Positions 1 through 64,000 of a stretch of DNA of 64,000 nt are shown here, piece after piece. A model generated the notes under the pieces. That model searched no databases. It saw nothing but the letters and a program-made list of their open reading frames with translations, and was not told the DNA's origin. The position numbers and the translations under genes were made by a program. Source of the stretch: Tetradesmus obliquus (Eukaryota; Chlorophyta; Chlorophyceae; Sphaeropleales; Scenedesmaceae); NCBI GenBank assembly GCA_030272155.1, contig CP126202.1, positions 4,485,501 through 4,549,500 of the forward strand, given 5' to 3'. How positions within the stretch are numbered: the stretch's first letter is position 1; the number at the start of each line of letters is the position of its first letter.

Positions 1-1960
1 TGCTGATCAGTAGCTCGGCATGCCTCATTCGTGTGAGGCCCAAGCGTGCCAGATACAACAGAGGTGCTTTGGCAAAGTATCCCAATGCTCAGTGCTTGAG
101 GGAAGCAGCAGCGAGCTACGAAGCTTTGCACAGTGGCAATACGTTTCAGGTACAACAGCGCAGGCTGCACACACGCACGCACGCACATATGCACGCATAC
201 ATATACACAACACACGCCTCACCTGCCCGCAGCTTGGGCAGCTGTATGGTGTCATACACAGCATCCAGCGCACCATGGCAGCAGCACAGCAAGCCACAAC
301 CGCCTGTCCTGTGCCAGAGCCCTCTGATTCCCCCTCCCACCACACACGGCTGTGTTGCAACCGCCACAGCCCTCACCTGGCTGCAGCTTGGGCAGCTGTA
401 TGGTGTCATACACAGCATCCAGCGCACCATGGCAGCAGCACAGCAATCAACAACCCCCTGTCCTGTGCCAGAGCCCTCTCAATCCCCCTCCCACCACACA
501 CGGCTGTGTTGCAACCGCCACAGCCCTCACCTGGCTGCAGCTTGGGCAGCTGTATGTTGCCATACCCAGCATTTAGCAGACCACAGCATCTGCAACAGCC
601 AGCAACAACACTCTTTCCTAAGCCAGCACCACAAACCGCCACAGCCCTCACCTGGCTGCAGCTTGGGCAGCTGGATGCTGTCGTATTCGCGTGTTGCCAG
701 CAGACCACAGCATTCTCAACAGCCAGCAACAACACCCTTCCCTTTCTCAGCACCACCAGCTGCCACACGCCTCACACCCCTCCCCCTATCCCCTGGCATC
801 TCACCTGGCTGCAGCTTGGGCAGCTGTATGTTGTCGTACCCAGCATTTAGCAGACCACAGCATCTGCAACAGCCAGCAACAACACTCTTTTGTAAGCCAG
901 CACCATACAACCGTCATAGCCCTCACCTGGCTGCAGCTTGGGCAGCTGTATGTTGTCATACTCGCGTGTTGCCAATAGGCTGGTCCACTTCTTGTCACCA
1001 GCAGCACTGAAGCTGACCTCCCACTCCACACCCTTCGGGGGCAGCTGCAGCATGGAAGTGAGGCAGGCAGAACAGACATAAGTTGCTTTCTTTCTATAAC
1101 TTGCTTGAAATGCAAAGCAGACACGCATGTGCAGCTGAAGCTGACCTCCCACTCCACACCTTTTGGAGGCAGCTGCGGCAGCAGCAGCAGCAGCAGCAGT
1201 GCAGCAGAGCAAACATGAGCTGCTTGCAAGGCAAGCTAGTGCACGCATGGGCAACTGAAGCCGGAGCATCCAGCAGCACGACAGATCCAGTCAGCCAGAT
1301 CCAGGTAGCTGATAATGGTAACCGATATATGTCACTGCTGCAGTGCCACGTGTTATGGTGCCGTGCAGCAGGCTCAAGTCCGGTGCGTCCAGCAGCAGCG
1401 TGAGGCTGCTGTTGGCCTATCAGCAGCGGTCACGCAATCACAGCAGCAGGCCAGACACGCACCTTGCCATTGAGCAGGCTGAGGTCGGGTGCATCTAGGA
1501 GTGTACAGAAAAGCCACTCAGCAGCACACAACGGCCGTAAACTACCCATACTGCTGCCCTATTACACTCTGCTCACCTTGCCATCCAGCAGGCTCAGATC
1601 GGGTGCGTCCAGCACCAGCGTGAGGCTGCTGTCAGCAGCAAACAATACAGACATCCAGCCAGACCTAACCAAACCCTACCCAATCAGGTGACTGCTGCAG
1701 TGTCATGCAGTCTCACCTTGCCATCTACCAGGCTCAAGTCCGGCGCATCCAGCACTAGCGTGAGGCTGCTACTTGCCTATCAGCAGCGGTCAAGCACCAG
1801 TCACAGCAGTACCCCAAACATGTATCATAAACACACACCTTTCCATCCAGCAGGCTTAGGTCGGGTGCATCCAGCACGAGAGTGAGGCTGCTGTCGGTGG
1901 CGGCGTGCAGCAGCAGGCGCGGCGTCTGGCGCAGAAAGTGCTCACGGATGACCCGCTCCT

Positions 1961-1992
<32 letters not shown>

Positions 1993-6962: not shown

Positions 6963-7075
6963 TGAGCACGGGGCTGTGATGTGTTACAAGCACTTGTGAC
7001 ATCCAAGCCTGGTGACAGCTGTTACTGTGGGGTGCCTCTGCTGTAGCACACACACACCAACAGAAATAAACTCAC

Positions 7076-7675: not shown

Positions 7676-7684
7676 AAACAAGGG

Positions 7685-8521: not shown

Positions 8522-8561
<40 letters not shown>

Positions 8562-8955: not shown

Positions 8956-10684
8956 TTCTTCCACTCCTTCCTCCTGACTGCTGACAGCCTCCTCCTCCTT
9001 CAGCTGCTGCTGCTGCTGCTGCTCATCATGCTGCTTCTGCTCATCCTGGTGCTGCTGCCCCTGACTGCTGCCGCCTCCCAGCCATGCTGCTACTGCTGCC
9101 TCGTCTTGCAGCACCACCGGCATCCTGTTGTGCAGCCAGGTCAGCTTGGGAGACGCATCCACAGTCATGATGGTATAGGTGGCCATTGGGCCTTCGGGCC
9201 CACCTGCAAGGTTCAAAACATTATACAACACATTGAAACATCCTGTAAGTAGGACTGTAGTAGGCAAGCTGTCAGTTACTCCACACGCTGCTTCGGCAGC
9301 ATTCTGTTGTGCAGCCAGGTCAGCTTGGGGGCAGCATCCACGGTCATGATGGTGTATGTTGCCAGGGGCCCCTCCGGCCCGCCTGCAAGGTCAGATACAA
9401 ATCATAGAGCATCAGAGTAGATGAGCTGTTTGATATTCCACATGCTGCTTCGGCAGCATTCTGTTGTGCAGTCAAGTCAGGCTTGGGGAGGCGTCCACGG
9501 TCATGCCATGACACCATCATGGTGATCAGTGATTGTGGCATACCATCTAGTAGGTGGCCAGGGGCCACGCCTGCCCACCTGACAACTATTACTATAAAGC
9601 AACAGGGCAGCTGCATGTCAGCCTGTCAGTGCCATCCTGCCGGCTGCTGCTGCAGCATAACACTGCAGCCGCCGCCAGGGGCCAGCCTTGGAAACCCTAA
9701 ACACAACATGCTGTGTTTGAAATATGGCTGCAAATAAGAGCTTTGCAATCAGCGCACCTGCCCACACATCGTACAGCCCTGCCATGCGCATCACGCTGCC
9801 CTCCCCGAATGACACGTAGTAAGGCTGCTTCCTGCCGCCAGCATCTGCCTTCCACTCGTAAAAGCCCTCAGTCAGCACCACGCAGCGCTGCCTTGAAAGC
9901 AGCCGGCAGAGTGCACTGCAACAGCCACGCTCACCAAACCCTATTCATAGCCACGTTCACAAACAATACTAGGGCAGCTATTCAAAGCAGAGCTGTGCCC
10001 ACCTGCCCACACATCGTACAGTCCCGCCATGCGCATCACGCTGCCCTCGCCAAACGACACAAAGTAGGGCTGCTTCCTGCCACCAGCGTCAGCCTTCCAC
10101 TCGTAAAAACCTTCAGTCAGCACCACGCAGCGCTGCCTTGACAGCAGCCGTGAAAACACGGGCTTCTCTGTTGCGCTCTCTGAGCGTGCGTTGAACTTCA
10201 AAACGCAATATTTACAGCAGCATCAGCATCATCATCATCAGCAGCAGCAGCAGCAGAGTTGTCGCAACGGCAGCAACGTCAACAGTTTGCAGCAGGCATT
10301 CACAGCAGGCGGTGTCTAGCATGAGACTGGCAGGAGTGCGGCAAGCTCCTCCAGGCACCCCCCTGACGTGACTACAATACATGACCGCTGTGGTAGCATG
10401 TGTACGACAGAGGGGAATCGCACATGAATGGTTCTGCTGCTGCACCACATGCAGCACATGTGCCATTTCAGCAGCACCTCACCATCCTGAAGTGGTCTGG
10501 AACCCCCCAGCAACAGCATCAGCAAATAAAAGCGCAGCAGCAGGCCCAACAACGTTCAAACATTACATGCAGCAAATATGCCGTGTCAGCAGCCCCTCAC
10601 CATCCTGAAGTGGTCTGGCGTCTCGCCTGGCTTGGTGAAGCTGGGCACCAAACCCCACCTGGCAGCAGCAGCAGCAGTTATGGT

Positions 10685-13510: not shown

Positions 13511-14562
13511 CATTAATCAGCTTGTGGAGGAGCTGCTGACCTTCTGGTCACTGGAGGACTATGAGGACACACTGGAAGAGCTGGAGGAGGCACTCATCGT
13601 GAGTACTGTTTCTACCTTTGTGCATGAATTTCACAGCTGGCACGGATAAATGAGTGAATGCTGCAGAGTATTATACAAGGCAGGTGTGAAGATGCGTGCG
13701 GTTTGGTGCCAGGCCAGTTGCACCATTTCTTGTCACTTGGAGGTGTAGAAGGACACATTGGAGGAGCTGGAGGAGGCACTCATCGTGAGTTCACAGTCCA
13801 GGCTGCATGAACTTCACAGTGCTGTGCCCGTGAAGTTCACACCTGGCAGTGTGATGTTGCCTTGTGTCAGACATGCGATGCTGCAAACTAACACACAGGA
13901 CAGTCATGCCGGCATTCTAGCGCCCTCTTCATTCCAGGGCCCATGGTTTAGGGTTTGGTTTTTTACAGTTCGGCATTGCCACCTGAACACAGCAAGCAGC
14001 CTTAGGTGCAGGACAACGCTTGCTCTGGTCACGGGCTTGGGTTGCTCACTGCCACTGCCGCTGCCACTGGTGCTCCTGCCAACACTGCTGCTGCCGCTGC
14101 TGCTGCTGCTGCCGCTGCAGACGGCAGACTTTGGTCCCAAGACAGCGCTCACAATTGTGGATGGCCTTCGTGAGGAGCTCAAAGCAGGCAGCATCAAGAC
14201 AGCAGATGACATGCGGTCAGCATTAAAGCGCCAGATCATTGCGCTGCTGGAGCCGGCTAACAACAGCAGCAGCAGCAGCAGCAGCAGCGGCAAGACTAGT
14301 GAGCTGCAGCTGCAAGGGGAGCCAGCAGTGCTGCTGATTGTGGGTGTGAATGGAGCCGGCAAGACGACAACAATCGGCAAGCTGGCGCACAGGCTGAGCA
14401 AGGAAGGCGCGCGGGTGAGCGAGGGCGGTACATGGTGGCACCAGCAGCGGCAGCAGCACCACCACACATAGCATGTCACAGGCACGTGGGTTGGCATGAT
14501 TGGCAAGCTGGCGCACAGGCTGAGCAAGGAGGGCAGGTGGGCGAGTATGGGGCAGTCAAGGT

Positions 14563-14605
<43 letters not shown>

Positions 14606-14898
14606 CATGCACGTCCCAGGCGTGTAGGTCGGCACGATTGGCAAGCTGGCGCATGCTGAGCAAGGAGGGCAGGTGGGTGAGTGTGTGGCAGTGAGTGCAG
14701 CAGCATGGCAGCAGCAGCAGCAGCACACGCGCATGTAGGTTGCTTCCATAAGTATGGCTGCTCATATCCTCTCCGTTGCTGCTGCTGCTTGCTGCAGGTG
14801 CTGCTTGCTCCTGGCGACACTTGCAGCAGCAGCTGAGCAGCTTGCTGAGTGGGCGCGCCGCTCAGGCACTTTCAAGGAGGCTTGCTTACATATTCTAA

Positions 14899-14930: not shown

Positions 14931-16293
14931 CCCTGTTGCTGCTGCTGCAGGTACTGCTTGCCCCCGGCGACACTTTCCGTGCAGCAGCAGCCGAGCAGCT
15001 AGCAGAGTGGGCCCGCCGATCAGGCGCCAAGATGGGCACTTTCAAGGAGGGTGGGCGGCCGGGTGGTGTGCTGGCTGCTGCCTGCAATGACGCAAAGCAG
15101 CAGAAGGATGTGGATGTTGTCATTTGCGACACAGCGGGGCGGCTGCACACAGCGTATGCGCTCATGGAGGAGCTTGCCAACTGCAGGTGAGTTAATGGCC
15201 TGACAGTATCAGGTCATTGTCATCAATGTAAAGCTTTGCAGTTTGCTGCTTTGAGTGTGATGTCGTGCTTGCCGCCCGGTGGAAGGGGGTGCAGATGCTC
15301 TCTGAGCTGGCGCATGCTGTGCTGCAACGGCAGAAGCGCCGCAGCAGTGCTTCTATGCTGTTTCATCCTTTGGTGTTGCACACACCTTTGTTGACTGAGG
15401 CGGATGCGTGTTGCTGCTATCGCTGCTGCTGCCGCAGGAAGAGCATAGCCAACGTGCTGCCGAAGCAGCCGTGTGAGACGCTGCTGGTGCTGGACGGCAC
15501 CACAGGTGAGGGGCTGATGTGGCTGAGCTCAACATGTTGCAGCAACTTGCACCGCAGCACTGACATGTTGTGCGTGAAAGCAGACGGGTTGCTGCTGCTC
15601 CTGCTGCGTCTGTTGGATGGTGCAGCAGCTCTGCGTCTGTGGTGCTGCCGCTACTGACTTTGTAGATCAAGCCGCTGATCAATGCAATATTTTTACTTGT
15701 GCTGCGGCTGCGGCTGCTGCCTGCGCCAGGCCTCAACATGCTCAACCAGGCGCGAGAGTTCAACGACACAGTGCCACTCTCAGGTACGCTACGCAGCTGC
15801 AGCTGCTGCTACTGCTCAGCAGCAGCCTGCTGCTGTTGATGCTTTGGTAGCTTGCTTGGTGCATACAACGTCTCTCATGTGCCACAGCACTGTTAAGAGC
15901 CAGCAAGACAGCAAAGCAGCAGCAGCAGCGTCGCTTGGCACCCCATTGCCGTTCTTGCCGGCTGCGCGCCTTGCACTGTGCGTGCTGCGCCTACCGGCCA
16001 ATCCCCGCATGCTTCCCTGCTGCGTGTGGGCAGTGTATGACGCAGCCAGGCGTCATCAAAACCAAGCTTGATGGCACGCTTCTGCTGCTGCTGCTGCTGT
16101 TGCTGCTGCCCTTGCAGGCCTCATCCTGACCAAGCTTGATGGCACTGCGCGTGGCGGCGCTGTGGTGAGTGTGGTGGACCAGCTGAAGCTCCCCGTGAAG
16201 TTCATTGGGGTGGGAGAGACGCCCGAGGACCTGCAGCCCTTTGATGCCGTGAATTTTGCCGAGGCGCTGTTCCCCGCAGCAAAGCAGCAGTAA
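12233..16293 (+). CDS. FTSY: Chloroplast SRP receptor cpFtsY (SRP54-type GTPase)
   Basis: The receptor that brings cpSRP54 cargo to the thylakoid Alb3 insertase. Nine exons: 12233-12355, 12819-12895, 13202-13241, 13521-13598, 14121-14414, 14951-15186, 15438-15505, 15730-15783 and 16118-16293; frames close to 381 aa, near the 366 aa of Arabidopsis cpFtsY. Residues 1-41 are Ser/Arg/Ala-rich and look like a chloroplast transit peptide. Then come the N-domain helices (FFKGTSKTRERL, LEELEEALI), G1 NGAGKTT at 183-189, GDTFRAA at 210-216, G3 DTAGR at 264-268, LDGTTGLNML, G4 TKLDG at 328-332 and the closing FIGVGETPEDLQPFD. The long acidic A domain of cytosolic or bacterial FtsY is absent, as in plastid forms. 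Introns hold exon-edge copies. Confidence 0.95.
12901..12960 (+). repeat. (CAG)20 microsatellite in cpFtsY intron 2
   Basis: Sixty bases of pure CAG five bases after the exon 2 donor. Confidence 0.97.
13745..13790 (+). repeat. Echo of the 3' edge of cpFtsY exon 4
   Basis: Codons for DTLEELEEALI and the GTGAGT donor recur about 185 bases after the working exon end at 13598. Confidence 0.85.
14490..14690 (+). repeat. Two echoes of the P-loop exon end of cpFtsY
   Basis: IGKLAHRLSKEG codons with a following donor-like GT recur at about 14490-14540 and 14630-14680, downstream of the working exon end at 14414. The P-loop codons themselves (NGAGKTT) are not repeated. Long (CAG)n tracts lie between copies. 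Confidence 0.82.
14795..14882 (+). repeat. Echo of the 5' edge of cpFtsY exon 6
   Basis: Repeats acceptor, VLLAPGDT and AAAEQLAEWARRSG codons. Eight codons differ from the working exon (14951 on), all synonymous, yet five bases are missing after the GDT codons, so the copy is out of frame. Confidence 0.88.
16050..16082 (+). repeat. Echo of the 5' edge of the last cpFtsY exon
   Basis: A short copy of the acceptor and TKLDGT codons precedes the working exon at 16118. Confidence 0.7.
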
Positions 16294-16335: not shown

Positions 16336-16478
16336 CCGCGTGGTGGACCAGCTGAAGCTGCCAGTGAAGATGTGTTTTTTGGAAGTTCATCGGGGTGGGA
16401 GAGACACCAGAAGACCTGCAGCCCTTCGATGCCGTAAATTTTGCCGAGGCAATGTTCCCCGCAGCACAAAAACAGTAA
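16336..16478 (+). repeat. Second copy of the cpFtsY terminal coding exon, including a stop codon
   Basis: VVDQLKLPVK, FIGVGETPEDLQPFD and a tail AAQKQ with TAA recur 43 bases after the real stop. About 9 synonymous and 3 nonsynonymous codons differ. An insertion of about 14-16 bases after LPVK breaks the frame. Confidence 0.88.
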
Positions 16479-30571: not shown

Positions 30572-33081
30572 GCCGTGCCGCGCGCGCCAACGCCTGCGCA
30601 GCTGCCCCGCGTAGCGCTGCTGGCGTGTGGCAGCAGCAGGGGCAGCAGCACCAGCAGCAGCCCGGCCAGCAGCCCTACCAAGGCCTCTGCAGCAGCAGCA
30701 GCAGCAGCAGCTTTCAGAGCAGAGAGTGCAGGAAGCCCAAGTTCACTGCAGCAGGGGCAGTTGCCGCGTGTCGCAACGCTCGCTACTGCTGCTGCCACCC
30801 GGCAACAGGATAGCAGCAGCAAGAACAGCCCGCTGTCAAGCCCAACGAAGGCTAGCTCGGCTGCTGCTGCTGCTGAAGCCGAAAACAAGCCCTGTAGCAT
30901 ACAGCAGCAGCAGCAGCAGCGAGGCCGAGGCCCCAGGGTGCCGGGACCTGCAGGCAACGCTGCAGGGGCAGTGGCTAGAGCAGCACAAGGCGCTGCGCTA
31001 CACAAGCACAGCAGCAGCAGCAGTGCGGTTGGCCGCAAGCTGGGTGCTAGGATGTCAAGCAGCAGCAACGGCAGCGGGTGCAGCAGCAGCGGGTGCAGGA
31101 AAGGCAGGCCAGCTGCCAAGGACAGGAGCGCTGCTGCAGAAGCTAAGCCAGCAGCAGCAGCAGCAGCTGGACCAGAAGCTGAGCCAGCAGCAGCAGCAGC
31201 AGCTGAGCCAGCAGCCGAGGTAGCAGCAGCAGCAGCAGCTGAGCCAGCAGCAGCAGCAACAGCAGCTGAGCCGCCAGCAACAGCAGCTGAACCAGCAGCT
31301 CAGCCGGCAGCAACAGCAGCTGAGCCAGCAGCAGCAGCTGAACCAAACACTGCTGCAGCAGCTGCTGCTGCTGTAGCCCCTGATGCACCAAAGCTTGTGG
31401 CAGCTGCTGCAGCTCAAGAGGCCGCTGAAACAACTGCTGAGCCAGTTATTGCTTCAACAGCAGCAGAAGAATGCCAGCAGGAGCCGCCAGAGGTCTTGCA
31501 GGAGATTGATGCCTGTAGCGCTGCTGCTGGCAGCCAAGTGCCTGCTGTGTCTACCAGCCCTTTTGCTGTGCAGCAGACACCTGAAGACCACGATGCTGCT
31601 GAAGCTGCTGAATCTACGGCTGCTGCTGGTGCTGCTGCTGCTGCTGTGGCTGCTGCAGCTGGTGGCAGCAGCAGCAGCACTGCTGGCTGTGAGCCTGCCA
31701 GCAAGCCACCCTCAAGGGCAGCCAGCCACGACAGCTGCAGAAGCAGCAGCAGCAGCCTGCCCAGCAGCAAGTCCTGGGGCAGCAACAAGGCGGCTGACGC
31801 CGCTGCTGCTGCTGCTGCTGCTGCTGCTGTGTCAGCAAGCAGCCCTGGTGCAAGCAGGAAGGGCAGCAGCAGCAGCAGCAGCAGCAAGGCGGCTAGCCGG
31901 GACATCAGCAGGACAAACAGCCTTAGGGAGGAGCAATGGTGCCCACCCAACCGCAAGCAGCCGCAAGTTCACAGTAAGAACAGTAGGAACGCCACTGTGG
32001 AGACCACCGTGAACAGCAGCAGCGCATGCACACCTGGCAGCAGCAGGGCAGCTAGCCGTGCAGCCAGCCGAGTGTGCAGCAGGGCCAGCAGCAAGCCGCC
32101 TAGCAGGGCTAGCAGTGTGAGGAGCAGCATCAGCAACTTGCAGGATCACGGTGACGCTGTCTGCTGTGCGGTGCTTGGTGCTAGCCCAGCACACAGCACT
32201 GGCGCAAAGCTGCAGCAGCTGCTGGATCTGAAGGTGCAGCAGTGGCAGCAGCAGCAGCAGCAGCAGCAGAAGGGTCACCTGCAGCAGGGCATGCCTGAAT
32301 TGAAGGAAGCTGCTGCTGCTCAGGAGATTGATGCTGTCCCAGACGATGTGGCAGCAGCAGCAGCAGCAGCAGCAGGGGAGAAGGGCAGTGGTGGCTGCCG
32401 CCTGCTGTGTGATGCTTCCGGGGAGCATGTGGAGGGGCTTGGCCAGGTGGCAGGCGGCCACCTACTGCACAGGAACTGGTGAGGCGAGCTTTCAGTGTGA
32501 CCAAGCACAGTACAGTGTTTGTCTGTTTTGTATGCACACGTGTTGTGTGGTGAGGCAGGCTGTGCTGTGTGATGCATCAGGGGAGCCTGTCAAGGGTCTG
32601 TGCCAGGTGGCTGGGGGGCAGTTACTGCACGGGGACTGGTGAGGCAGGCTTGCAGTGTGACCAAGCACAGTACAGTGTTGTGTGTGGCTGTTTTGTATGC
32701 ACACGTGTTGTGTGGTGAGGCAGGCTGTGCTGTGTGATGCATCAGGGGAGCCTGTCAAGGGTCTGTGCCAGGTGGCTGGGGGGCAGTTACTGCACAGGGA
32801 CTGGTGAGGCAGGCTTGCAGTGTGACCAAGCACAGTACAGTATGTGTGTGTGTGTGTGGCTGTTTTGCATGCACATGTGTTGTGTGGTGAGGCAGGCTGT
32901 GCTGTGTGATGCATCAGGGGAGCATGTGGAGGGTCTGTGCCAGGTGGCAGGCGGCCACCTACTGCACAGGGACTGGTGAGGACGGCTTGCAGTTTGACCA
33001 AGCACAGTACGAAGTGCCTGCTACCGGGAACATGATTGACGGCATGCCTTCACACCTGTGCACAGGCGTGTTACCACCCAC

Positions 33082-33478: not shown

Positions 33479-34211
33479 CAATGCCGCAGGAGGTAGCCTG
33501 GAGGGTGCTGCAGGCAGCAGCAGCAGCAGGGTGTGGCTGTTCTGTGCTGACCCGCTGTGCCTGCTCAGCCGGCCCAGCACCACGCTTGAGGTGGAGCTGC
33601 CAGAGTGGTGAGCGCTTGCTTGCCCAGGCGCTGCTTGCCTCGTGATACTAGATATAGTGAGCAATAGCATCAACACTGCTTAAAGGGTGACAGAGGCTGT
33701 GCTGAATGCCAGACGTGCAGGAAATTTTCCCTGTTGCACTGCAGCAGCTGCTGCGCTGCATACAAGTCACCACATTGATGTACCACCGACCACAGTAGCG
33801 TGTAATGGTACCAGATGTATGCATCCTCCGTGACTAAGTATACAAAAGTATGGCTCTGTTTCTGTTGCTGCGTGCATGTATGTCTTCGCTATCTGCAGGC
33901 GCTGGAGCCTGGCCTGCAGCAGCGGCATCACGCTGAGCGGTTGAGCCACATCCTAAAACCACATCATCTCAACAATGAATTGTTTTGTTTGTGCCTGTCG
34001 CAACAGGCGCTGGAGCCTGGCCTGCAGCAGCGGCATCACGCTGAGCAGCGACGAGGTTGGGGAGCTGCAGGGCATGGGCATACAGCTCACGGGCCCCCCA
34101 CCTGCTGCTGCTGCTGGTGGTGATGGTGATGGCTGTGAAGAGGTGGAGGGGGATGCCGGCAGCAATGAGGTGTGCAAGGAGCTATTCAAAGAGGAGGAGG
34201 AGGACAGCTGA
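27117..34211 (+). CDS. Large Ala/Gln/Ser-rich orphan protein of about 1803 aa
   Basis: Five exons join in phase: 27117-27233, 27423-29831, 30281-32478, 33125-33607 and 34007-34211. I recognise no family. Most of the protein is low complexity: poly-Ala, poly-Gln and Ser runs, and two related blocks of the type LPRVALLA-SSP-SSPTKAS around residues 950-1050. It has Arg/Ser-rich repeats (SRAASRAASRVCSRASSKPPSRASS). The better-ordered C-terminal 230 residues include CDASGEHVEGLGQVAGG, QLVRLAAPVHCAAKDGTV, GGLELFQCNTLLRPGC, VWLFCADPLCLLS and an acidic tail ending KELFKEEEEDS. A scaffold or chromatin role would be guesswork. The first exon is the least certain. Exon-edge copies follow exons 2, 3 and 5. 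Confidence 0.68.
29905..30040 (+). repeat. Two echoes of the 3' edge of orphan-gene exon 2
   Basis: Codons for ATALAMVAGPDK plus GTGAG donor recur at about 29912-29952 and 29999-30037, after the working exon end at 29831. Confidence 0.85.
32550..32985 (+). repeat. Three echoes of the 3' edge of orphan-gene exon 3
   Basis: Units of about 165 bases carry acceptor-like GGTGAGGCAG, codons for LCDASGE-x-V-x-GLCQVAGG and a GTGAGG donor at about 32556-32640, 32725-32807 and 32894-32981. Each exon-like block is about 80 bases, not a multiple of three, so simple inclusion would shift the frame. Confidence 0.88.
33895..33945 (+). repeat. Echo of the 5' edge of the orphan gene's last exon
   Basis: Acceptor plus codons for RWSLACSSGITLS appear about 110 bases before the working exon at 34007. 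Confidence 0.85.
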
Positions 34212-34304
34212 ACGACCAGGAATAGGGGGGTGCAGCTGGCACACGTTGTGGCCATAACCATAGGAATCTGTCAGCTCCTTGATTGTGAGTGTGAGGAGGA
34301 GCCG

Positions 34305-34780
34305 GGCTGCGGAGCAGCGACGAGGTTGGGGAGCTGCAGGGCATGGGCATACAGCTCACGGGCCCCCCACCTGCTGCTGCTGCTGCTGCTGGCGATAGCG
34401 ATGCTGACGGTGATGGTTGCGAGGAGGAGGGGGGGGGGATGCCGGCAGCAGTGAGGTGTGCAAGGAGCTGTTCAAAGAGGAGGCAGAGGACAGCTGAACG
34501 ACCAAGAATAGGGGGTGAAGTTGGCACACTTTGTGGCCATTACCAGGAAGGACACACTAGGAATCTGTCAGCTCCTTGAATGTGAGTGTGAGGAGGAGCC
34601 GGGCTGCTGAGCAGCGACGAGGTTGGGGAGCTGCAGGGCTTGGGCATACAGCTCACCGGGCCGCCACCTGCTGCTGCTGCTGGCGATGGTTGTGATGGCT
34701 GTGAGGAGGAGGATGGGGATGCTGGCAGCAGTGAAGTGTGCAAGGAGCTGTTCAAAGAGGAGGAAGAGGGCAGCTGAATG
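34305..34780 (+). repeat. Two further copies of the orphan gene's terminal exon, each with a stop
   Basis: SSDEVGELQG-x-GIQLTGPPP through CKELFKEE and TGA recur at about 34311-34497 and 34608-34777. Spacers between copies are related too (GAATAGGGGG, TTTGTGGCCAT). Only the first copy (34007-34211) carries the upstream half of the exon. Confidence 0.87.
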
Positions 34781-37700
34781 AATGTGGGTTTGATAAGGGG
34801 CGGGGCTGCTGCCTGTGGTTTATGACGCATCACATGTGCACGGCTGGGCAGGCAATGCACTGCCAAAGGGCTTGTCATGCGCATTAGCACGCAACAAATC
34901 GCATGCTCACTTGCATGGCATGAGGCGTGGCAATGTGCTCTGGCATATACAATACGACCTTACGTTGTTTTTTTTCACATGTACACGGTGTTGACCACAC
35001 AATCGTCTCGGACTGTTGAGACCTGACTGTGACAAAGTTGACCTGACCATTCCTGGCGCTGTTTTGCACAGACGGCTTATGGTGTGATCGCTTGGCATCC
35101 ATGGTCATTGCCGCCATCATGCATGATTGCATCCATTGACCAGGGGTCCCTGACAGCAGGAGGTGGTGCATGGCCGGCTGTTTGCAGCTGCCACTTTGCC
35201 AAAGGCGTTACTATTATGACAGACATTGCTGGACGCATCACTATGCAATCATGATTTATGTTGCACGTGCTATTTATCTGATTTCACTTTGGATTCAAAC
35301 ATGGACTGGTTGAGCCTGTGACCAACGATTTTGATGCATGCATGCTGAGCATCCACAGCAACTTGCAGCCAGCAAGGTGGCACTGCATGTGCTGTTCTGT
35401 ATGAGGGCATGGCTTGCTGGTCTGATCGCTGCGAGAGAGGCTTGTTAGCCTGCTGGTCTGATCGCTGCTGATGATGTGTGCTTGTTGGAATGGGTGTGGC
35501 TTGATAGATATGAATGCTTGCGGACACCGTGGTGCGGCAGCAGCTATGAGCAGCGGGTTGAGGGCGCTGGCTGCGCGTGGGTTCGCTTCCCATGTTGAGC
35601 AGTCTTTCCTCAATTTTTTTATTTTGATCAGCTGTTGTTCCATTGGTGTGAGGCACCCCGGCTGGTAGCTTCATCCTGCATGCAAGCGCGCAGCAGCTGC
35701 CCTCCCCGCTGAATTCCACCATGCAATGGCATTGGCGCTGATGCTCCCATGATGATGGTGGTGGCAGTGGTGTGATTGATGGTCATGATCATGCATGCAT
35801 GCAATGATTGCGGAAGCAGCCACGAGTGCATCACCTGCAGTGCACTTGATTTACGGCTGCATCATGTTTGGCAGCGGCCCTGCTAGGCTTGCAGACGCGG
35901 CAATTTTCAACAGGTTTGACAGTTGATGGCCGGCCCAGACCGGGGATCTGTGTTGTGTTGTGGTTGTGTCATACTAATGTCGGAGTAGGAGCATGTCATT
36001 TTCCATGGTCAAAACATGGCCGGAGACCGGTCTCACAGCATCCTGCTGTCAAGTCACTGTTTGAACACACGTCATGTGCTGACTGGGTACTAACTTGTAG
36101 GAGCTTGTCTCCGGCTGTAGCTTCAAAACACCCAGGTGTTTAGCGGAGGCCTCCACCATTGGCGGCACATCATCAACTTGTCAGCGTGGTTTTGACCTTT
36201 CTCTGGTCTGTCCCTCAGGGCCTGAGAACTCGAAATCTCATCTATCTTTGCCCTGAGTGCTGTGTGATGGACAGGTTGACCAGCCCGTCTGACTCAGCGA
36301 AAAGCCCAACACAACTCCATCAGGCAGTGCACATGATCAGACAAGCTATACACAAGCCACTGGGGTTGCCTTGGCTGTTTTGCTGCAGCGGTTTAGGCAC
36401 AGACCATCAACCGCTGATGCCCCAAACGCAACTGCAACAAGCCAATGCCAATTCCATGTCATGTCGTCTCCTTGAATGGTGATCAGCCTGCCCCGAGCCA
36501 CCCCACAGCAGCATCCTTGCTACTGCAGCATGTTCCTCCTGCTTCACCGCTGCTGCTTTTCTAATGCCTCAATATTTCTGAGTTTGTCTTGAATTTTCTT
36601 ATGTGCAGGTTCATAGCTCAAACAATGGGCTGCTCTCGTCAGAGCACTAGGCCAGTGCTTTGCTGGTGCCGTGGTGAAGCAGTCGCTGGTGTAGAGCGTC
36701 TCACATGGGCGATGATTGCAGAATGCTCGTTGCTATGTTGTGCGACGGCATCAGCGACTGCTCGGAATCCGTGGCACCTGTGACAGCTCCAGCTGCAAGG
36801 CTAGGTGGGTGCAGCAAGGTGCAGTGATCTGGTGCTTAGAGATACACGCCTGCTGCAGCAGTTACGGCACATTGTGTGCATTAAGTATTTATGTAAGTCA
36901 ATTTGCAGCAAACGCTGCATGGAGCTTGCGGTTTCTGCCTGTAGCTTGCAGTGGTTTGTAATGCATGCAAGCTGCAGTAGTACAGATCAAACCAGGGTTG
37001 CCATCTGCAGAGCTGCAGCTGGGCCTTCATGTCCACGAACGACTTAAAGTTCATTACACTGCTGCCAAGTTTCCAGGTCAAGACATACATTTTGCTGCTT
37101 TGTTCAGACACCACACGTCAGCACCGTCCATGTCTGCATGTGCATGAGTATTTACTTCTCCATGCTGCATCCTCTTCCTTCCACTGCTGCCTCACTCCAG
37201 CGCCTTGCCTAGCACGCAACTAAAACCCCTGTCCACAGAACCCTATTGTGCACCAAACGTCAAAGTTCCGCCCTGCTGTTTGCCCTGCTGTCATCCTGCA
37301 GGCACCGCCCGGGTGATGCCTCCAGCATAGCAGCAGCAGGAGGGCCCTGCTGCTGTATGTACCCTTCCCTGCCGCCACCCCTGGGCCAGACAGATGCCCA
37401 GAGAGCAGCAGCGTTTCACTTTGACTTTGACCAGCTGGCTGGTCGAAGTTGACGCTGCTGCTCGCAAGTGAAGACGGCACTCTTACGGGCAGCGGCAATT
37501 GGTTGGCTGCGAACAGTAAAGGGGGCAGCGTCCGGGCCACACCAAGCGTGTGTTGCATGCATGAACGAGACGCCGGCATGCATGCGCGTGCGGGCGTACA
37601 GGTTTGAGCCCTGGCGCCGTGGGTAGATGCACAGCGACTTTCTGCCCACTGCCCTGTTCAAGACATGCCGCGATTGGCATGGCAGGGCATGCACGGGCTC

Positions 37701-54156: not shown

Positions 54157-57100
54157 GTTCGTGATCTTGACAGGTTTATACACACAGCCAGGGGGCCAAA
54201 ACAATCACCTGCGCCGCCAGCAGCAAAGTCGCATCATCTTCATTGTAGCACAAAACAGCGTAGCACAGCACAGCACAGCACAGCACAGCACAGCACAGCA
54301 CAGCACAGCACAGCACAGCACAGCACAGCACGGCACAGCACACAGCACAGAACTACAGATGGACCATGGCATGCTGCTCACGTGAAAGGGCTCCTCCATA
54401 AACGCTCCAATGATCTCAACGCCCAGCAGCAGGAGGGCGATGACCACAGCCAATTTCAACATTGAAAACATCTAAAGTCAAACCCAGCAGCAGCCAACTC
54501 ACATGGAAAGGCTCCTCTATAAAAGCCCGTGAGAGGAATATTATGAAGAGAGAAGGGCACTTGCAACACTAGTAAATGGTAACCAAAGGCGCTCACGTGA
54601 AAGGGCTCTTCGATAAAAGCTCCAATGTTCTCCGCGCCCAGCAGCAGGAAGGCGATGACCACAGCCAGAGGTGGGCTGGCCCAGCCCGCCATGGGCCACA
54701 ACACAACACTCATCCGGCACAGTCAATCGATCAATCAAATACACGTTTTTCTAGCAAGAGGTGAACCCAGCACAGTGCTCCCTCAAATTATAAGATCCTC
54801 TATGCAAGTGCCAATGTTCCCTTAGCCCTGCTACCGTGAAAGGGCTCTTCTATGAAGGCTCCAATGTTCTCCACGCCCAGCAGCAGGAAAGCGATGACCA
54901 CAGCCAGAGGTGGGCTGGCCCAGCCCGCCATGGGCCACAACACAATACCTCTCATCCAGCACTCTGCTCCCTCAAATTATAAAGATCCTCTATGCAAGTG
55001 CCAAGATTCCCTAAACTTCCCGCTCACATGAAAAGGCTCTTCTATGAAGGCTCCAATGTTCTCCACCCCTAGCAGCAGAAAGGCGATGACCACAGCCAGA
55101 GGGGGGCTGGCCCAGCCCGCCATGGGCCACAGCAGCAGCGGCAGCAGCGTCAGGTACACCATAAGGAAGCGGCTGGTGTGCCTGCAGCAGCAGCAGCAGC
55201 AGCAGCGGCAGCAGCAGCACATAAACAATATGATTGCAGCGGCAGCAGGATCAGACACGCAAATGCCATGTCCTAGCTCTGCCAAACACTAAACGTCACT
55301 GCATTAAACAGTTGCTGCTCCGCACTGCAGACCCCTTCACAATTATCTCTGCAGCACTTTTCTGCGTGCTCACCGCGTGTAACAGAAGGGAATGGCGGTG
55401 TTGTAGATGCGCCCGCAGGCGCCAAACTCAAAGGTGTACAGCGACAGCATGGCATCCAGGCGGCTCTTAGCCATGGGGTCCACGTCTGACGCAGCCACGA
55501 TGCTGCTGAGGGCCTGCAAGTCAGCAGCAGCAGCAGCAGCGGCAGCAGCAACAAACGGGACTCAAAAGGTGTACAGCGACAGCATGGTGTCCAGGCGGGA
55601 CTTGGCTATCGGGTCCACATCTGAAGCAGCCACGATGCTGCTGAGGGCCTGTGAAAATAGGACATTGGCACAGCACGCAACGTGCAGCGTGCAGCACACA
55701 ACCGAGCAGTGAGCAATGAGTAATTGATTGTGTGTGCATGTGTCCAGGCGGCTCTTGGCCATGGGGTCCATGTCAGATGCAGCCGCGATGCTCGACAGTG
55801 CCTGTAAATCAGCAAAAGCAGCACATAGCACACATGATTACAGAGTTGCGGCGAACTGCTTGAGCGTTGTGTATGATCTGGGACTTGGCCATGGGGTCTA
55901 TGTCAGGCGCAGCCACCCTGCTCGGCCTCACCTGCCCTAGTGCTAGTGGCCGGTGGCTTTGCTCCAGCCGCCATTCCAGCTCAGCAGGCAGCAGCACACC
56001 TCGCAGCTCGTTCCTCAGCTGCCCTGCCACCAGCGGCCGCACTGTCAACTTTACCACCCACATGGCGGCAACTGAGTCTGCTGGGGCTTGCTTCATGTGG
56101 TGTGTACAGCAAACCAAGTGCAAAAAACAAAGGCCAGACCGCAGCAACTGCCCTCACCTGTCCCAGGGCCAGCGGCCTGTGGCTCTGCTCCAGCAGCCAT
56201 TCCAACTCGGCAGGCAGCAGCACGCCCCGCAGCTCGTTGCGCAGCTGCCCCGCCACCAGGGGCCGAACTGTTGACTTGACCACCCACATGGCGGCTGCTG
56301 CCCAGCGCGCCAGCGCGTGCACGAGGTGTGCTTGGTGCGGCGGGATGTAGGCAACTCCCTGCGGCACATGGTGTGCATCAAAGCATGCAGTTGGTTGTGG
56401 GCAATGGCTTGCTGCAGGTGCCTGGTGGGGAGCACCCATATCGCGGCGGCTGCCCAGCGCGCTAATGCGTGTACTAGGTGCGCTTGGTGCGGCGGTTGGT
56501 TAGTGTTGGCAGTTGGTTGCGGTCAAAGGCAACACCCTGCGGCGGCAAGTTGAGGTAGCAGTTGGTTAGTGTTGGCAGTTGGTTGCGGTCAAAGGCTTGC
56601 TGCGGCCGCACAGTGGACTTGACCACCCACATGGCGGCTGCTGCCCAGCGCGCTAATGCGTGTGTGAGGTGAGCTTGGTGCGGCGGTATATAAGCAACAC
56701 CCTGCGGAATGGTGTGGTTGCAGGCAGTCACGGCAACATCGAAAAATTGAAGCAGGGCTGACAATACACTGACGCTGCATGCAGATGATGCAGCCGGTCA
56801 TTGCAATGAGGTTGTAGGCTGAAGCTGACGGCTGACGACAATGGCTGACATGCTCCAGCTTGGCGCACCGACACACCCCACAACACCTTGCCAAACAGCA
56901 TTTCAAGACTCAGGCAAACGCGCAAGCCCCACCTGCCGCACGATGTTGTGTGCCAGTGACACCAGCTGCCCCACATCCTTGCGTGCTTCCCACCAGCGAG
57001 CGTAGCTGCTGTTTGTTTTGAACACCAGCAGCAGCGTCAGCGCAAAAGTGATCGCGCTGAAGAAGGCCTGCACGGATGAGAGGCTCAGCATAGGCCAATG

Positions 57101-57714: not shown

Positions 57715-57791
<77 letters not shown>

Positions 57792-58996: not shown

Positions 58997-59472
58997 GTGA
59001 CTGATCCTTTGTTTGAGCTGGAGATGGGAGGCTTTGACCCGCCGGATCTGGTGCTGCCTGGGCGCTTGCTGCTTTGTGGAGTCCTTGTGACGCTCTCTTC
59101 AGGTAAGGCCTGCAGGAACGGGCCCCGGCGAACGACGCAGCATCATTTAAAAGCAGAATAGTTTGCTCTTGTCACATGTTGTGCAGCAGGCGTGCAGCAT
59201 CGCGCGTCCTTTACAACCGAGGGCTTGGCTGCCTGCAGCAGTTGTGCATGCAGTAGCTGCATCCCCGTCCCAGCTGCTGCCTCGTTGCTCGCTGCTTACG
59301 GTTGCTGCCTTATTCGACTTCTGCAGGACCCGTGACGATGACAGCGGTGCTCTCCCGGCCTGAGTGGCCCGGAGGCCTTCCCTCTGCCACCAGCCCTGCA
59401 CCCTTGGGTACTGCTGCTTGCAGCAGCACCCCTGCTTCAGCTGCGGCACAGCGCCCGGCTGCAGCAGTGTGA
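58997..59472 (+). CDS. Tentative two-exon terminal part of an unknown gene
   Basis: 58997-59102 (VTDPLFELEMGGFDPPDLVL) joins at phase 1, through a good CAG/GTAAGG donor and a CTGCAG acceptor, to 59327-59472 (GPVTMTAVLSRPEWPGGLP, then an Ala/Ser-rich end and TGA). No ATG-bearing exon was found. The minus strand over 58755-59111 is also open and protein-like (SSVRRIISKLPEGLASRL), so the strand is not certain. Confidence 0.35.
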
Positions 59473-60807
59473 TGTGCAGAAGTGGGTTCGGCAGGACCCT
59501 AGACTGAAGTAGACCACGCAGCTGCTAGTGTTCCTAGCAGCTGCTTGGTGTGAGTATCATCCTGCAGGGCTGGAAGTCATCCAGCCTTGCAGGATGCTGC
59601 TGCTGCAGCCTGGCGCGGCAACCCTAGCGTTGTGGCGGCAATGTCATGAGGCATGCGAATGATGCTGCCTGCAGGCATTGATGTGGGGGCAGCGCGTGCA
59701 TGCGCCTTGCAGGAAAACACACTGCTTGTTCTGGCCAGTGTCAAGATGCTGCTTGTGAGCCGGAATTGTCCTGCCCGGCAGCGGCCTGGTGTTTCAGAGG
59801 CAGTGCTTGCAGGATAACCAGAGGCGGCCTGCTTGGTGTCAGTGTTACCCTTGCAGGAACGTTGTTTGGCAGCCAGAGTTGCTGCTCCGTCCTCTTAGCA
59901 TGCCACACGTGTTATGTTCCCATGGGTGTTGGTGCGCTTTGTGGCCCGCCCGGTGGCGGCGGTGCGTGCAGGCGCCCTGTTAGCATTTTGCCATTGGCAT
60001 GTTCAGCACGGATGCTAAATGGAGCTCCATGGCATTTTGAGCATGCTTTTATATGGCATGCTTGCACCCCCGTAGGGCTGGAGGCATTGCCCCTGCCCTA
60101 TTGGCCGCCCTCACCTGTCTCTTGCTTTGCAGGATTCAGGTGTCGCTAACCTCGCATGGCTGCCAAAATGGAGGCGCCATAGCTTAATTCTCTCCTTTTA
60201 CCCTCGCTGAGCGAAGCTTTGCACACTCAGCCGAGCCTATTTGCAGGTTCACCCGGAATGCGTGGACTCGCATGGAATGTGCTGCTGGCGGGGGCCAGCA
60301 CCACAAAACAGCGCTGCTGCTGCTGCGGTTGGCAGCTCGCTTTCGCTTGGCCAGCAGCACACTTTTGGCATTTCACACCACTCCCTTTGTCAGGGGTAAA
60401 CCAGGTTTGTTCACTTGTGTGAGCATCGCCGCTGGTGCGTTGATTTGTACCCCAATTGCAGCAGCTCTAGTCTGTTTGGCAGCACACGTGCGCTTTGGTC
60501 GCCTGTGCTTTGTGCCTTTGCATTGGTTGTCCAGTTAGCACCACGTGGTCCTATTTGTGTAGCCGCTTGTTGTTTTGCAGGCATCTTGTGCTGCTGGCTG
60601 GCTTTGGAGCAGTTTGCTGCTGCAGCAGGTCAGGTCAGCGCTGTTGGACTAGGGTTTGATTGGGAGGAGCGGAAAGTCACCTGCTGGTTCATGTTACGGA
60701 CGTAAAAGGCCGGGCTTTATCCGCCTGTGCCGGACTGAGAGGCGGCCACTCGGCTGCTATCTGCACTGCTTCAAGCGCTTGGAAAAGAGGACTTACCTGG
60801 CAGCGAC
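59473..60807. other. Unassigned stretch rich in TTGCAGG acceptor-like motifs
   Basis: Roughly nine CTTGCAGG/TTTGCAGG sites occur between 59549 and 60580, but no matching exons with donors could be found. Confidence 0.4.
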
Positions 60808-62659
60808 ATGAAGGTTGATTTCACTGGAATGGTGAGCGCTGCGCTTGATGCTGCTAGCTGAATGAGGCAGCCAGTATTGAGCTCTGCAAGTTATTGCTTG
60901 CATGTAGCAGTTTATATACAGTGGGCAGCTGCAGCAGATGCGTGCAGGGGTCATGGAGGCAGCTGGTGCAGTCGCAGCAGCCAGACATGCATGCGTGCAC
61001 ATGTACAGGCCTGTGTGTTAGGATAGGCTGGGCTGTGGAGCAGGCGGCACTGGCACAAGCTTGCGGCATTTCCTGCAGTTCTGTCCAGTCAGCAACAAGG
61101 CTGCAGCGGGCAAGACCACCCGGGCCTGCATGAGATAGGGCCCAGGACAGCAAGGAAAGGAAAGCATCAAGGGGATGTCAGTGCAGCTGCTGGTGCTATG
61201 GAGACAGGTGAGCTGCTGTGTGGAGCAGGGCTGCTGCCCTGCGCATGTTGATAACACAAAATTCCTGCAGGCATTTGCGTCTGGGCCAGCAAGGCAGTCA
61301 GGGTGCAGCAGCTGCTGCAATGGAGTCAGTTGAGCTGCTGCTTGGAGCAGGGCTGCTGCCCTGCGCACGTAAGTAACCCAGTTTCATCTGCAGGTGTTAG
61401 CTGTACCTGTGCAGACAGGTAGCCTTTGTTTCAAGCACTGCACTGCTGCTGGCAACAAGCGGTTGCTGTGACATGGTGAGTTGTCGTGAGTTGTGGTGCA
61501 GTAGCAGCAGCAGCACGCTACATGCTGTCGGTTGGGTGCAAAAGACGGACAACGCAGATCTGCACGCATGCTTGGCATGGTTATGTTTGGTCGGTTGGTG
61601 GGGCTGGCATGCATACAGCATGCATGAGAGTGCAGCAGCTGTGCAGCATTTTTGGATGCAGCGACACACACAACTAGCAGGCACAGCACGCATATGCTGC
61701 GACAATGTGGCATCTCCCTGCTGACTGAGACGAGCAATGCAGGGTTGGTTTGAGGCAGCTGCTGTTGATGTGATGGCTGCGGCATGCAGTTGAAGTAGGG
61801 CGACCTTGAAGAGAGGCGTTGCATGTTTGCAGTAGATGCGGTGGCTGTTGCTATGGTGTATGCATGTGCAGTGCATGGCTGTTGCTATGGTGTATGCATG
61901 TGCAGTGCATGGCAGTTGCTATGGTGTATGCATGTGCAGTGCATTGCAGTTACTGCATATGAGCTCGGGGTTCCTCTGGTACCAGTCCAGCACCTCTTGC
62001 AGCAGCCCCTCTTCTTGCAGGAACAGCGAGTTGCTGCTGAAGGTGGCAGACTAGTACCAGGAGCACCCTCAGCTGATGGGCAGTACAGGTGCAGTTGCAG
62101 GTCATGTTTTGTTAAAATGGGGCTGTCAAGGGTGTAAAGGGAGAGTTTTCCTTCGAGTAAAGGTGTGAAGGCTGAGCACAGACTGGATTTTGCAGGTGTA
62201 GTAGCTCATTTTGGCTGTGGCAGTCGCAGTGGGCTTCTGCAGCCTCCAGCCTTGTCATGTGGAGTGCCCTAAAAGCTGTTGTGGCATGCTGTGGGGTGTT
62301 ACGTTTTCAGTACCTGTGTACGTATGGCAGCCTGCCATACGTACACACCTGCCAATGGCATTGGCAGGTTGCGAGGTGGTAACCTACATCTTTGGCTTCC
62401 TGTGTTCTGTGTTGCAGCAGAATCGCTTTTTCAGAAAGGCTGCAACACAAAAGTGCCAGGTGCTTGACCTGCTCAGCCAGATCACCATTTTCGATCGTTC
62501 ATCTAGCAGCAGCGGTAACGTACTTGATTGAGCGAGAACAAAGAGCACAGTACAGACCGAGCAGCACAATGAACGGCCAATCGATGCCAAGTGGACTCTG
62601 GCACGGCAGCAGTCGGTCCCACTGGCAGCAATGGGCAGCAGGCGACAAAACGCAGCAAG
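60808..62659 (+). CDS. Tentative multi-exon gene, function unknown
   Basis: Exons 60808-60831 (MKVDFTGM), 61139-61207, 61394-61418, 61950-62088 and 62418-62659 join in frame. The best is 61950-62088 (TAYELGVPLVPVQHLLQQPL), followed by SRIAFSERLQHKSAR and MNGQSMPSGLWHGSSRSHW. The second exon's 3' edge is repeated at about 61298-61345 with its donor GT changed to TT, in line with the echo pattern. No motif recognised. It may be the 5' part of the kinase gene that follows, but no acceptor in the right phase was found. Confidence 0.35.
61836..61945. repeat. 36-bp tandem repeat, three copies
   Basis: Units of GTTGCTATGGTGTATGCATG plus TGCAGTGCATGG, the last ending at the acceptor of the exon at 61950. 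Confidence 0.9.
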
Positions 62660-62704
62660 GTGAATGTAAACAGTGTACTCCATTTAAAGATATAGGGCGG
62701 TTTC

Positions 62705-63355
62705 ATGCGTTGCTTCCGTGCTTCACCGCAGCAGCAGGGGACAAGCAGTACCAGCAGCAAGCCTGACACACTCCCACCTGCTGGCCCTTCACGCCCTGCA
62801 GGAGCCCGCAGAACGCCTTTCAACCTCAATCCTGTGGCAACAATCGCCGATGACAGCAGCACTGTAGCCGCAAACACTGCCAGCTCTAAAGCAATCACCA
62901 GCAGCACTCCCTCAGTGCCACCCTCAGCACTTTTCCAGCCAGGAGATGTTATCAGCAACAGCAGCAGCAGTAGTGGTAGTGGCAGTAATAGTAAAAGTAG
63001 TGGAGATGCTTCAACTTCACGTGTGGGTGCAGTTGCCGTTTCCAGTCAACATAGCAGCAGCAGCAGCAACAGCAGCAGCAGCTACAAACTGGAAGCACTG
63101 GCTCACTCAGGCCCCCGCTCAAATGTGTGGAGGGCCACCCGCCTGGCTGACGGCAGCTTGGTGGCTGTCAAGGTGAGAGAATGAATTTGCTGCTTGCAGC
63201 AGCAGCACCACCATCAGCAGCAGCAGCACCTGCAGCATGGTGAACCAACTGGCTGGTTGCAGCAGTTCATAGCCACCCGGCTGGCTGACGGCAGCATAGT
63301 GACTGTGAAGGTGAGTGCACTGCTGGGCACAACTGCTAAGCTGTAGCAACACATA

Positions 63356-63386
<31 letters not shown>

Positions 63387-64000
63387 GTGGTGACTGTCAA
63401 GGTAAGAGCTGTGAGAGTAGTGCTTGATGCAGCACTATCACCTTACCTGACCTAGGGTTTAGGGTTTAGGCCAGCCATCACAGCATGGCCAGGCACCTGG
63501 CTGTTGGCTGGAGCAGCAACAGCAGCAGCAACATGATGCCAGCAGTCGGCACAGTAGCGCAACAAGGCACCCGTCAAGTGTGTTGGCAGCGCTGTCACCC
63601 TGCAGCTTGACTGGACCGCCCACTGTAGGGTTTGCTCGTGTCCAGCAGATAGATCAATAAAGACTTTGCTGCTATGCTGTTTTTGCTGTGCAGGCCCTGC
63701 GCACTGCCTTACCTCTCATTGTAGGGTTTGCTGGTGTCAACCAGCCTAGCCTGACTAGTGCTGCTATGCTGCACGCTGTTTATGCTGTTCATGCTGCTAT
63801 GCTGTGCAGGCCCTGCGCACTGCCTCACTTCTCATTGTAGGGTGTGCTGGTGTCAACCAGCCTAGCCTGACTAATGCTGCTATGCTGCACCTGTTTATGG
63901 TTTATGCTGTTTATTCTGCTGTGCTGCTATGCTGTCATGCTGCTGCAGGCCCTGCGCACAGCCTCACCTGAGCAGCTGGCAGCAGCGTAGGGTTGTTGTA
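62705..64000 (+). CDS. Protein kinase, N-terminal part (runs off the right edge)
   Basis: From ATG 62705 a Ser/Thr/Pro-rich leader of about 125 residues leads to YKLEALAHSGPRSNVWRATR and LADGSLVAVK, ending at a donor after 63172. This fits the kinase glycine loop and beta3 lysine (VAVK), although the loop has only one canonical glycine (SGPRSNV for GxGxxG). The next exon appears to be at about 63949-63987 (ALRTASPEQLAAA), joining phase 0 to phase 0. The rest of the kinase domain is outside the window. The intron between contains copies of both exon edges. A start further upstream is possible. Substrate and subfamily cannot be told. Confidence 0.55.
63255..63405 (+). repeat. Two echoes of the kinase VAVK exon end
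   Basis: ATRLADGSIVTVK plus GTGAGTG at about 63262-63312, and a shorter VVTVK plus GTAAGAG at 63388-63403, follow the working exon end at 63172. Confidence 0.85.
63451..63470 (+). repeat. Interstitial TTTAGGG run
   Basis: CCTAGGGTTTAGGGTTTAGG: two full TTTAGGG units plus edges, the Arabidopsis-type telomere repeat also found in many green algae. Too short to mark a chromosome end. Confidence 0.8.
63600..63948 (+). repeat. Echoes of the next kinase exon's acceptor, about 120-bp unit
   Basis: GCTGTGCAG or CTGCAG followed by GCCCTGCGCACTGCC begins at about 63694 and 63810, before the probable working copy at 63949. Each is preceded by TGCTGCTATGCTG repeats and followed by TTGTAGGGT-TGCT-GTGTC. 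Confidence 0.85.

What the first reader, a model, noticed from the sequence alone, without database searches (positions are those of the whole stretch)
1..64000. Splice-junction echoes: introns built from copies of the neighbouring exon edge
At least ten genes in this window have introns holding one to five extra same-strand copies of an adjoining exon edge with its splice site (J-protein exons 4, 6, 7; HMCES 4, 5, 6; cpFtsY 4, 5, 6, last; bestrophin 3, 5, 6, 7; both orphans; GRF/3CxxC; kinase). More than 35 copies are seen by eye. Tandem duplication across an AGGT site is a known route to new introns, but I know no description of such dense repetition in gene after gene. It suggests a continuing local mechanism, an unusual splice-site redundancy, or a systematic assembly error.
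Basis: seen in the sequence. Interest (0 to 1): 0.92.

Follow-up and report, generated by a model that had tools for sequence, protein, structure and literature searches.

The report
Half-exon copies scattered in algal introns
Genes of this genome, probably an alga's, carry in the introns beside their exons partial copies of the exon edge that differ from the real exon mostly at silent letters, so many of the copies seem to have been working gene sequence until recently rather than junk since birth.

Summary
In the window all 73 repeat pairs at E<=1e-6 are direct and within 800 bp, none inverted. Twenty other 10-kb stretches gave 129 direct pairs under 1 kb, 5 farther apart, 0 inverted. Echoes are partial exons reaching one splice edge. 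Those with the 5' splice site lie downstream of their exon (15 of 15), those with the 3' site upstream (6 of 6).

The new result: exon and echo differ mainly at synonymous positions. Over 32 of 40 echoes from 7 genes, 216 of 293 mismatches are third-codon; a simulated neutral echo gives 130.5 +- 7.2, at most 154 in 300 runs. Adjoining intron sequence is unlike in 26 of 33. Two echoes with frame-breaking gaps, one beyond a stop codon, show the bias too. GT/AG pairs that would rebuild the exon are not enriched (4 of 25; controls 7.4), so the AGGT idea is not supported.

Best reading (0.4): local duplication and unequal exchange between diverged copies of the same gene, confined to exons because only exons still match, drop recently functional exon pieces into introns. 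Use in mRNA, or an assembly artefact, is not excluded. Interest 0.7.

The parts
1839..1958 (-). exon xA of the J-protein-like gene (ERVIREHF...DAPDLSLLDGK)
   Evidence: open frame with AG/GT borders
1361..1770 (-). four 5'-edge echoes of xA: 1717-1770, 1577-1633, 1463-1498 (score 26), 1361-1415 (match stops 4 nt before the edge)
   Evidence: syn:nonsyn codons 6:1, 6:0, 4:1, 5:3
927..1044 (-). exon xB, taken as the same gene (LPPKGVEW...QLPKLQP)
1135..1172 (-). 3'-edge echo of xB
   Evidence: 3 syn: 0 nonsyn
223..839 (-). five 5'-edge echoes of xB: 805-839, 652-699, 531-565, 377-411, 223-257
   Evidence: 1:0, 3:1, 0:1, 0:1, 0:3
10003..10195 (-). HMCES (SRAP) exon 4
   Evidence: Pfam SRAP 2.4e-26
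9758..9905 (-). 5'-edge echo of HMCES exon 4
   Evidence: 12 syn: 1 nonsyn over 49 codons; only other genome hit of this peptide
9096..9203 (-). HMCES exon 5 (part modelled)
9299..9505 (-). two 3'-side echoes of HMCES exon 5: 9299-9380 and decayed 9443-9505 (in-frame stop)
   Evidence: 2 and 7:6
56158..56358 (-). bestrophin exon 5
   Evidence: Bestrophin_2 1.9e-37 over the gene
56430..56701 (-). two 3'-side echoes of bestrophin exon 5: 56604-56701, 56430-56495
   Evidence: 1 and 7:2
55932..56074 (-). 5'-edge echo of bestrophin exon 5
   Evidence: 3
55374..55513 (-). bestrophin exon 6
55565..55922 (-). 3'-side echoes of bestrophin exon 6: 55565-55648, 55743-55792, 55884-55922 (score 25)
   Evidence: 6:2, 3:2, 1:3
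55028..55181 (-). bestrophin exon 7
54383..54942 (-). 5'-edge echoes of bestrophin exon 7: 54837-54942 (GT shifted by one), 54598-54703, 54503-54526 (8 residues only), 54383-54452
   Evidence: 7:0, 9:1, -, 7:3
13524..13598 (+). FtsY/SRP54-type GTPase exon xA
13727..13784 (+). 5'-edge echo of xA with a 1-nt gap and a stop
   Evidence: 4
14358..14414 (+). end of G-domain exon xB (GKTTTIGKLAHRLSKEGAR)
   Evidence: SRP54 Pfam
14499..14670 (+). two echoes of the end of xB: 14499-14534 and a gapped match 14565-14670
14951..15186 (+). exon xC
   Evidence: SRP54
14798..14880 (+). 3'-edge echo of xC, 17 nt deleted in two gaps
   Evidence: 0
16118..16293 (+). last exon, ending in stop
   Evidence: SRP54
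16340..16478 (+). echo of the last exon lying beyond its stop codon, with 16-nt insertion
   Evidence: 9:3
32403..33010 (+). array of four units, spacing 160-172 bp, that look like an exon edge with donor (by eye)
   Evidence: (D7, D9)
34040..34781 (+). three copies of a segment that reads as a terminal exon by eye, two beyond the first stop
   Evidence: (D10)

Best explanation
Shown: introns in many places of this genome hold partial, same-strand copies of the adjoining exon edge, and copies whose introns no longer match differ from the exon as two working versions of a gene differ. Inferred: echoes start as local duplications from inside an exon into its intron. They then take part in unequal exchange between diverged versions of the same gene (alleles or introgressed haplotypes). 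Since only exons still match between such versions, crossovers fall in exon sequence. They leave exon pieces that worked until recently, with their splice site, beside the working exon. There they decay neutrally, and some are multiplied in tandem.
For: Third-codon excess over a neutral echo (216 of 293 against 130.5 +- 7.2). Intron flanks unlike in 26 of 33 although the exon parts align at a median of 90%. The bias sits in echoes with unlike introns (153 syn: 44 nonsyn codons, 26 echoes) more than in those with alike introns (23:20, 7 echoes). Mosaic units: in the ligase gene two echoes differ at 1 of 59 intron bases but 7 of 60 exon bases; in the chaperonin gene 1 of 39 against 7 of 72, the flank match there being p 0.067 because of CTG repeats. 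Two syn-rich echoes are frame-broken: FtsY xC (8:0, 17 nt deleted) and the last-exon copy beyond the stop (9:3, 16-nt insertion). No paralogous source in this assembly for the three exons sought. Orientation rule.
Against: Synonymous difference lies between 45% and 85% of codon-usage saturation in 22 of 36 echoes (full range 12-113%), very deep for alleles of one species. Several exon edges carry three to five mutually diverged versions, so more than two source lineages are needed. No second haplotype or relative could be looked at. In the 200-kb sample as a whole, all repeat types together, the periodicity excess is weak (212 of 421 against 202.9 +- 5.8). Echo-echo pairs are syn-rich too, which may mean that constraint lasts after birth.
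Confidence: 0.4

Rival explanations
1. Echoes are used now: transcripts take the second or first half of an exon from an echo by alternative or unconventional splicing, so selection on the protein keeps them.
For: Exon-like divergence; echo-echo pairs are syn-rich too (82:65 codons, 100 of 165 mismatches third-codon; echo-unique 24.0 syn: 15.5 nonsyn per two echoes, nine sets); splice sites kept in 19 of 20 that reach the edge.
Against: 0 of 40 echoes span both exon edges; no enrichment of GT/AG pairs restoring the exon (4 of 25 against 7.4); two syn-rich echoes are frame-broken, one of them beyond the stop codon.
Confidence: 0.2
2. Simple tandem duplication with echoes neutral from birth, and only the exon under selection.
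For: Local, direct, tandem; young units in the ligase gene are alike in exon and intron; 16 of 32 echoes have p>0.05, and some look plainly neutral (ligase x2 4:10, GTPase xA 2:4, three J-protein xB echoes 0:1, 0:1, 0:3).
Against: Pooled third-codon share 0.74 against 0.45 expected, beyond all 300 simulations; echoes with unlike introns are the more synonymous, the reverse of neutral ageing.
Confidence: 0.1
3. Assembly chimera: exon edges of several diverged haplotypes or strains strung together by consensus errors.
For: Exon-only similarity with silent differences is what two haplotypes or strains would show (inference).
Against: 17 contigs, C1 starting in telomere repeat, no N in 264 kb; near-identical arrays of 151-154-bp units; up to six copies at one edge.
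Confidence: 0.12
4. Fusion of former tandem gene copies: deletion from one copy into the next leaves exon pieces.
For: Would give the same anatomy and silent divergence (inference).
Against: No direct repeat pair farther apart than 1 kb in the window and 5 in 200 kb, so no visible stock of tandem paralogs.
Confidence: 0.08

Closest known systems
[quoted passage not shown] Rogers 1989 AGGT model; Hellsten 2011; potato RdRp case, PMC4974935)
   Same: tandem duplication inside a gene, across exon-intron borders, can add intron sequence
   Different: here GT...AG pairs restoring the exon are not enriched and the exon stays whole; dense in gene after gene; silent divergence. (PMC4974935: passages read. 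The three older papers were seen only as cited there and in PMC3488318.)
Tandem exon duplication and unannotated exon copies in introns (PMC9013439, passages read)
   Same: exon-like copies in the adjoining intron, some unannotated
   Different: those are treated as exons used alternatively; here 0 of 40 echoes span both exon edges
Tandem repeats near intron-exon junctions in Chlamydomonas and Volvox (PMC3887541, passages read)
   Same: green algae, tandem repeats concentrated at intron ends
   Different: the passages read speak of short motifs; no exon copies or codon pattern in them
Introners (PMC9860276, listing and start of abstract only)
   Same: repetitive sequence in many introns
   Different: introners are dispersed copies; echoes are local

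Membership tests
AGGT tandem-duplication intron gain | duplicated segment supplies GT and AG so that the spliced product is unchanged | tested here: not met
   4 of 25 echoes have such a site, shifted controls 7.4; a minority of single cases is not excluded
AGGT tandem-duplication intron gain | tandem duplication within a gene | tested here: met
Tandem exon duplication / mutually exclusive exons | copy is a complete exon with both splice sites | tested here: not met
   0 of 40 echoes reach both edges
Tandem exon duplication / mutually exclusive exons | copies appear one at a time in mRNA | not testable with these tools
   no transcripts held
Introner elements | similar copies in many unrelated genes | tested here: not met
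   three exons sought genome-wide hit only their own locus above 55% identity; 0 inverted and 5 far pairs in 200 kb
Minisatellite array | head-to-tail units of one length | tested here: inconclusive
   true for young arrays (151-172 bp), not for echoes with unlike introns (26 of 33)

The most novel reading that the evidence does not exclude
The half-exon copies are working spare parts: by homology-based switching between direct repeats, in DNA or in RNA, the cell makes products in which half an exon comes from an echo. Echoes without proper splice partners, even beyond the stop codon, are thereby exposed to selection on the protein.
Probability: 0.08. Interest if true: 0.93.

Novelty: new variant of a known kind. 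Interest (0 to 1): 0.7.

Why it matters
Internal duplications at splice junctions are usually reported one by one. Here a genome seems to make them in gene after gene and keeps a dated record of them in its introns. The silent divergence says that many pieces were working exons shortly before they landed. That makes it possible to test how introns grow, whether exons recombine between deeply diverged gene versions, and how splicing ignores many intact-looking decoy splice sites. Gene finders could also call false exons there.

Tried and rejected
Six-frame codon scoring to find genes drifted into the CAG repeats and was dropped. Family searches did not cover the window: six frames were read for 4-9, 45-50 and 61-64 kb, three + frames for 13-16.5 kb, one + and three - frames for 1-15 kb, one frame per strand for 30-60 kb; the rest (15-30 kb apart from the GTPase end, 60-61 kb, other frames) was not searched. 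Hidden whole exons: protein-level search lengthened echoes by a few residues as a rule; the two 3' echoes of bestrophin exon 5 were extended further at low similarity, from 33 to 43 and from 27 to 47 residues of the exon. Reconstitution by internal GT/AG: not enriched. Exon evolving fast while echoes stay frozen: would need silent change in the exon roughly ten times faster than neutral change in the echo (my estimate), and echoes with alike introns are less, not more, synonymous. Gene conversion between exon and echo: by simple reasoning cannot lower the nonsynonymous-to-synonymous ratio per site below about 0.5; not simulated. Literature: six searches on the pattern and two on the organism showed no description of such dense half-exon copies; only listings and the passages named were seen, in an open-access library.

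Rows dropped: copies of which 40% or more is CTG/CAG-type repeat; echoes with fewer than 3 mismatches (four) and four of the five ligase x4 copies (32 of 40 used); gapped, short or edge-less echoes (25 of 40 used); echoes without a splice edge or on terminal exons (33 of 40 used). The 40 exon-echo pairs do include the five near-identical ligase x4 copies. The 19 exons were chosen where repeats or known domains were seen, not at random. The simulation used a transition weight of 1.6 set by me.

Full report
Setting. The window lies in a 104.66-Mb genome of 17 contigs; contig C1 begins with CCCTAAA telomere repeat. It is about 57% GC and rich in CAG/CTG runs.

Is it there? Yes. With simple repeats masked, the window aligned to itself gives 73 direct pairs at E<=1e-6, all starting within 800 bp of each other, and not one inverted pair. 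Twenty 10-kb stretches taken at set places on ten contigs gave 129 direct pairs under 1 kb, 5 farther apart and 0 inverted; 15 of 20 stretches had at least one near pair, 5 had none. A whole-genome search with the chaperonin family PF00118 showed the same part of the profile hit repeatedly within a few hundred bases on C16 and C15. Both places were read and hold echoes. Three further loci (C4, C12, C14) show overlapping hits in that table but were not read; the other multi-exon loci of the table show no clear overlap.

Anatomy. I modelled 13 exons of four window genes and searched 2 kb on either side. The genes are a J-protein-like gene (DnaJ match below cut-off, and my exons only assumed to belong to it), HMCES/SRAP, bestrophin and an FtsY/SRP54-type GTPase. 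Echoes are parts of exons, mostly about 35-150 nt, that reach one splice edge or nearly so and stop inside the exon on the other side; 0 of 40 span both edges. Echoes with the 5' edge lie downstream of the exon in 15 of 15 cases (one of them the terminal exon); those with the 3' edge lie upstream in 6 of 6. This is what duplication from inside an exon into its intron gives if the exon must stay whole. GT stands at the exact edge in 13 of 14 internal 5' echoes that reach it, AG in 6 of 6. On the intron side, exon and echo are unlike in 26 of 33 (p>=0.05 against random stretches).

The main result. On adding two chaperonin genes and a glutamate-cysteine ligase gene, 19 exons give 40 echoes, 75-97% identical to their exon, median 90%. 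Over the 40 exon-echo pairs, 210 codons differ synonymously and 82 otherwise; mismatches by codon position are 55, 45 and 235. I simulated echoes that were free to change from birth while the exon could change only silently, at the same number of mismatches. For 32 of 40 echoes the third-position count is 216 of 293 against 130.5 +- 7.2, highest of 300 runs 154; 16 of 32 are individually below p 0.05 and 16 are not. A frame-free test agrees for the window (235 of 375 mismatches in the fullest phase, null 183.5 +- 5.7) but is weak for the genome sample of all repeat types (212 of 421, null 202.9 +- 5.8). Echoes with unlike introns carry the bias (153 syn: 44 nonsyn; 26 echoes); those with alike introns hardly do (23:20; 7 echoes). 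The synonymous difference ranges from 12% to 113% of what codon usage allows, 22 of 36 between 45% and 85%. Echoes of one exon also differ from each other in this way, though less strongly (82:65 codons, 34 pairs), so several edges carry three to five diverged versions.

What does not fit. Paralogs elsewhere in this assembly are not the source for the three exons sought: HMCES exon 4 hits only itself and its echo, the GTPase last exon itself, its echo and a 49% relative, bestrophin exon 7 itself, its echoes and relatives of at most 54%. The AGGT route is not favoured. Whole-exon duplication with mutually exclusive use is not met. Neutrality since birth is rejected for the pooled set, though some echoes fit it well. 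Present use in mRNA meets three obstacles: echoes are halves, the GT/AG pairs that would join halves are not enriched, and two syn-rich echoes are frame-broken, one with 17 nt deleted and one beyond the stop codon with a 16-nt insertion.

What fits best. Many echoes seem to have been working exon sequence for most of the time in which they diverged, and to be decaying now. Mosaic units suggest that exon parts and flanks have different histories: ligase echoes with introns 1 of 59 different but exon parts 7 of 60, chaperonin echoes 1 of 39 against 7 of 72 (flank match p 0.067), and three pairs of units in the J-protein array much more alike on one flank than on the other. I therefore infer recurrent local duplication plus unequal exchange between diverged versions of the same gene, with crossovers confined to exons because introns no longer match. 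Not shown: that such diverged versions exist in the population. Against it stands the depth of the silent divergence. I put it at 0.4 and leave use in mRNA at 0.2.

Literature. PMC3887541 (passages) reports tandem repeats concentrated near intron-exon junctions in Chlamydomonas and Volvox. [quoted passage not shown] PMC9013439 (passages) reports unannotated tandem exon copies in animal genes. In PMC12571836 on Sphaeropleales genomes a term search found intron, tandem and exon 0 times. PMC3488318 was searched for terms only. I saw no description of this pattern in six searches on it.

Noticed in passing
whole window: CAG/CTG runs are very frequent, in long open frames and between exons; 4.1% of the window was masked as simple repeat.
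   Followed up: no
L002 1-5617 (start of contig C1): Telomere repeat CCCTAAA at the contig start and a direct repeat at 889 bp distance, 99.9% alike over 4.3 kb, so a tandem repeat of about 890 bp.
   Followed up: no
window 34040-34781: A segment that reads as a terminal exon, in three copies, two after the first stop codon; the outer pair has mismatches 2, 6, 10 by phase (frame by eye).
   Followed up: partly
L011 4100-4620: Young array of about 151-bp units in a glutamate-cysteine ligase intron; two of the four units have TTGAGG in place of a GT donor.
   Followed up: partly
window 9299-9380: The HMCES exon-5 echo, if spliced to exon 4, would read in frame into a stop after a few more codons, so its use would make a shortened protein (by eye).
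   Followed up: no
L022 and L023: Chaperonin exons on C16 and C15 carry three 3'-edge echoes, and two 5'-edge plus one 3'-edge echo; C4, C12 and C14 loci show overlapping family hits that may be echoes too.
   Followed up: partly
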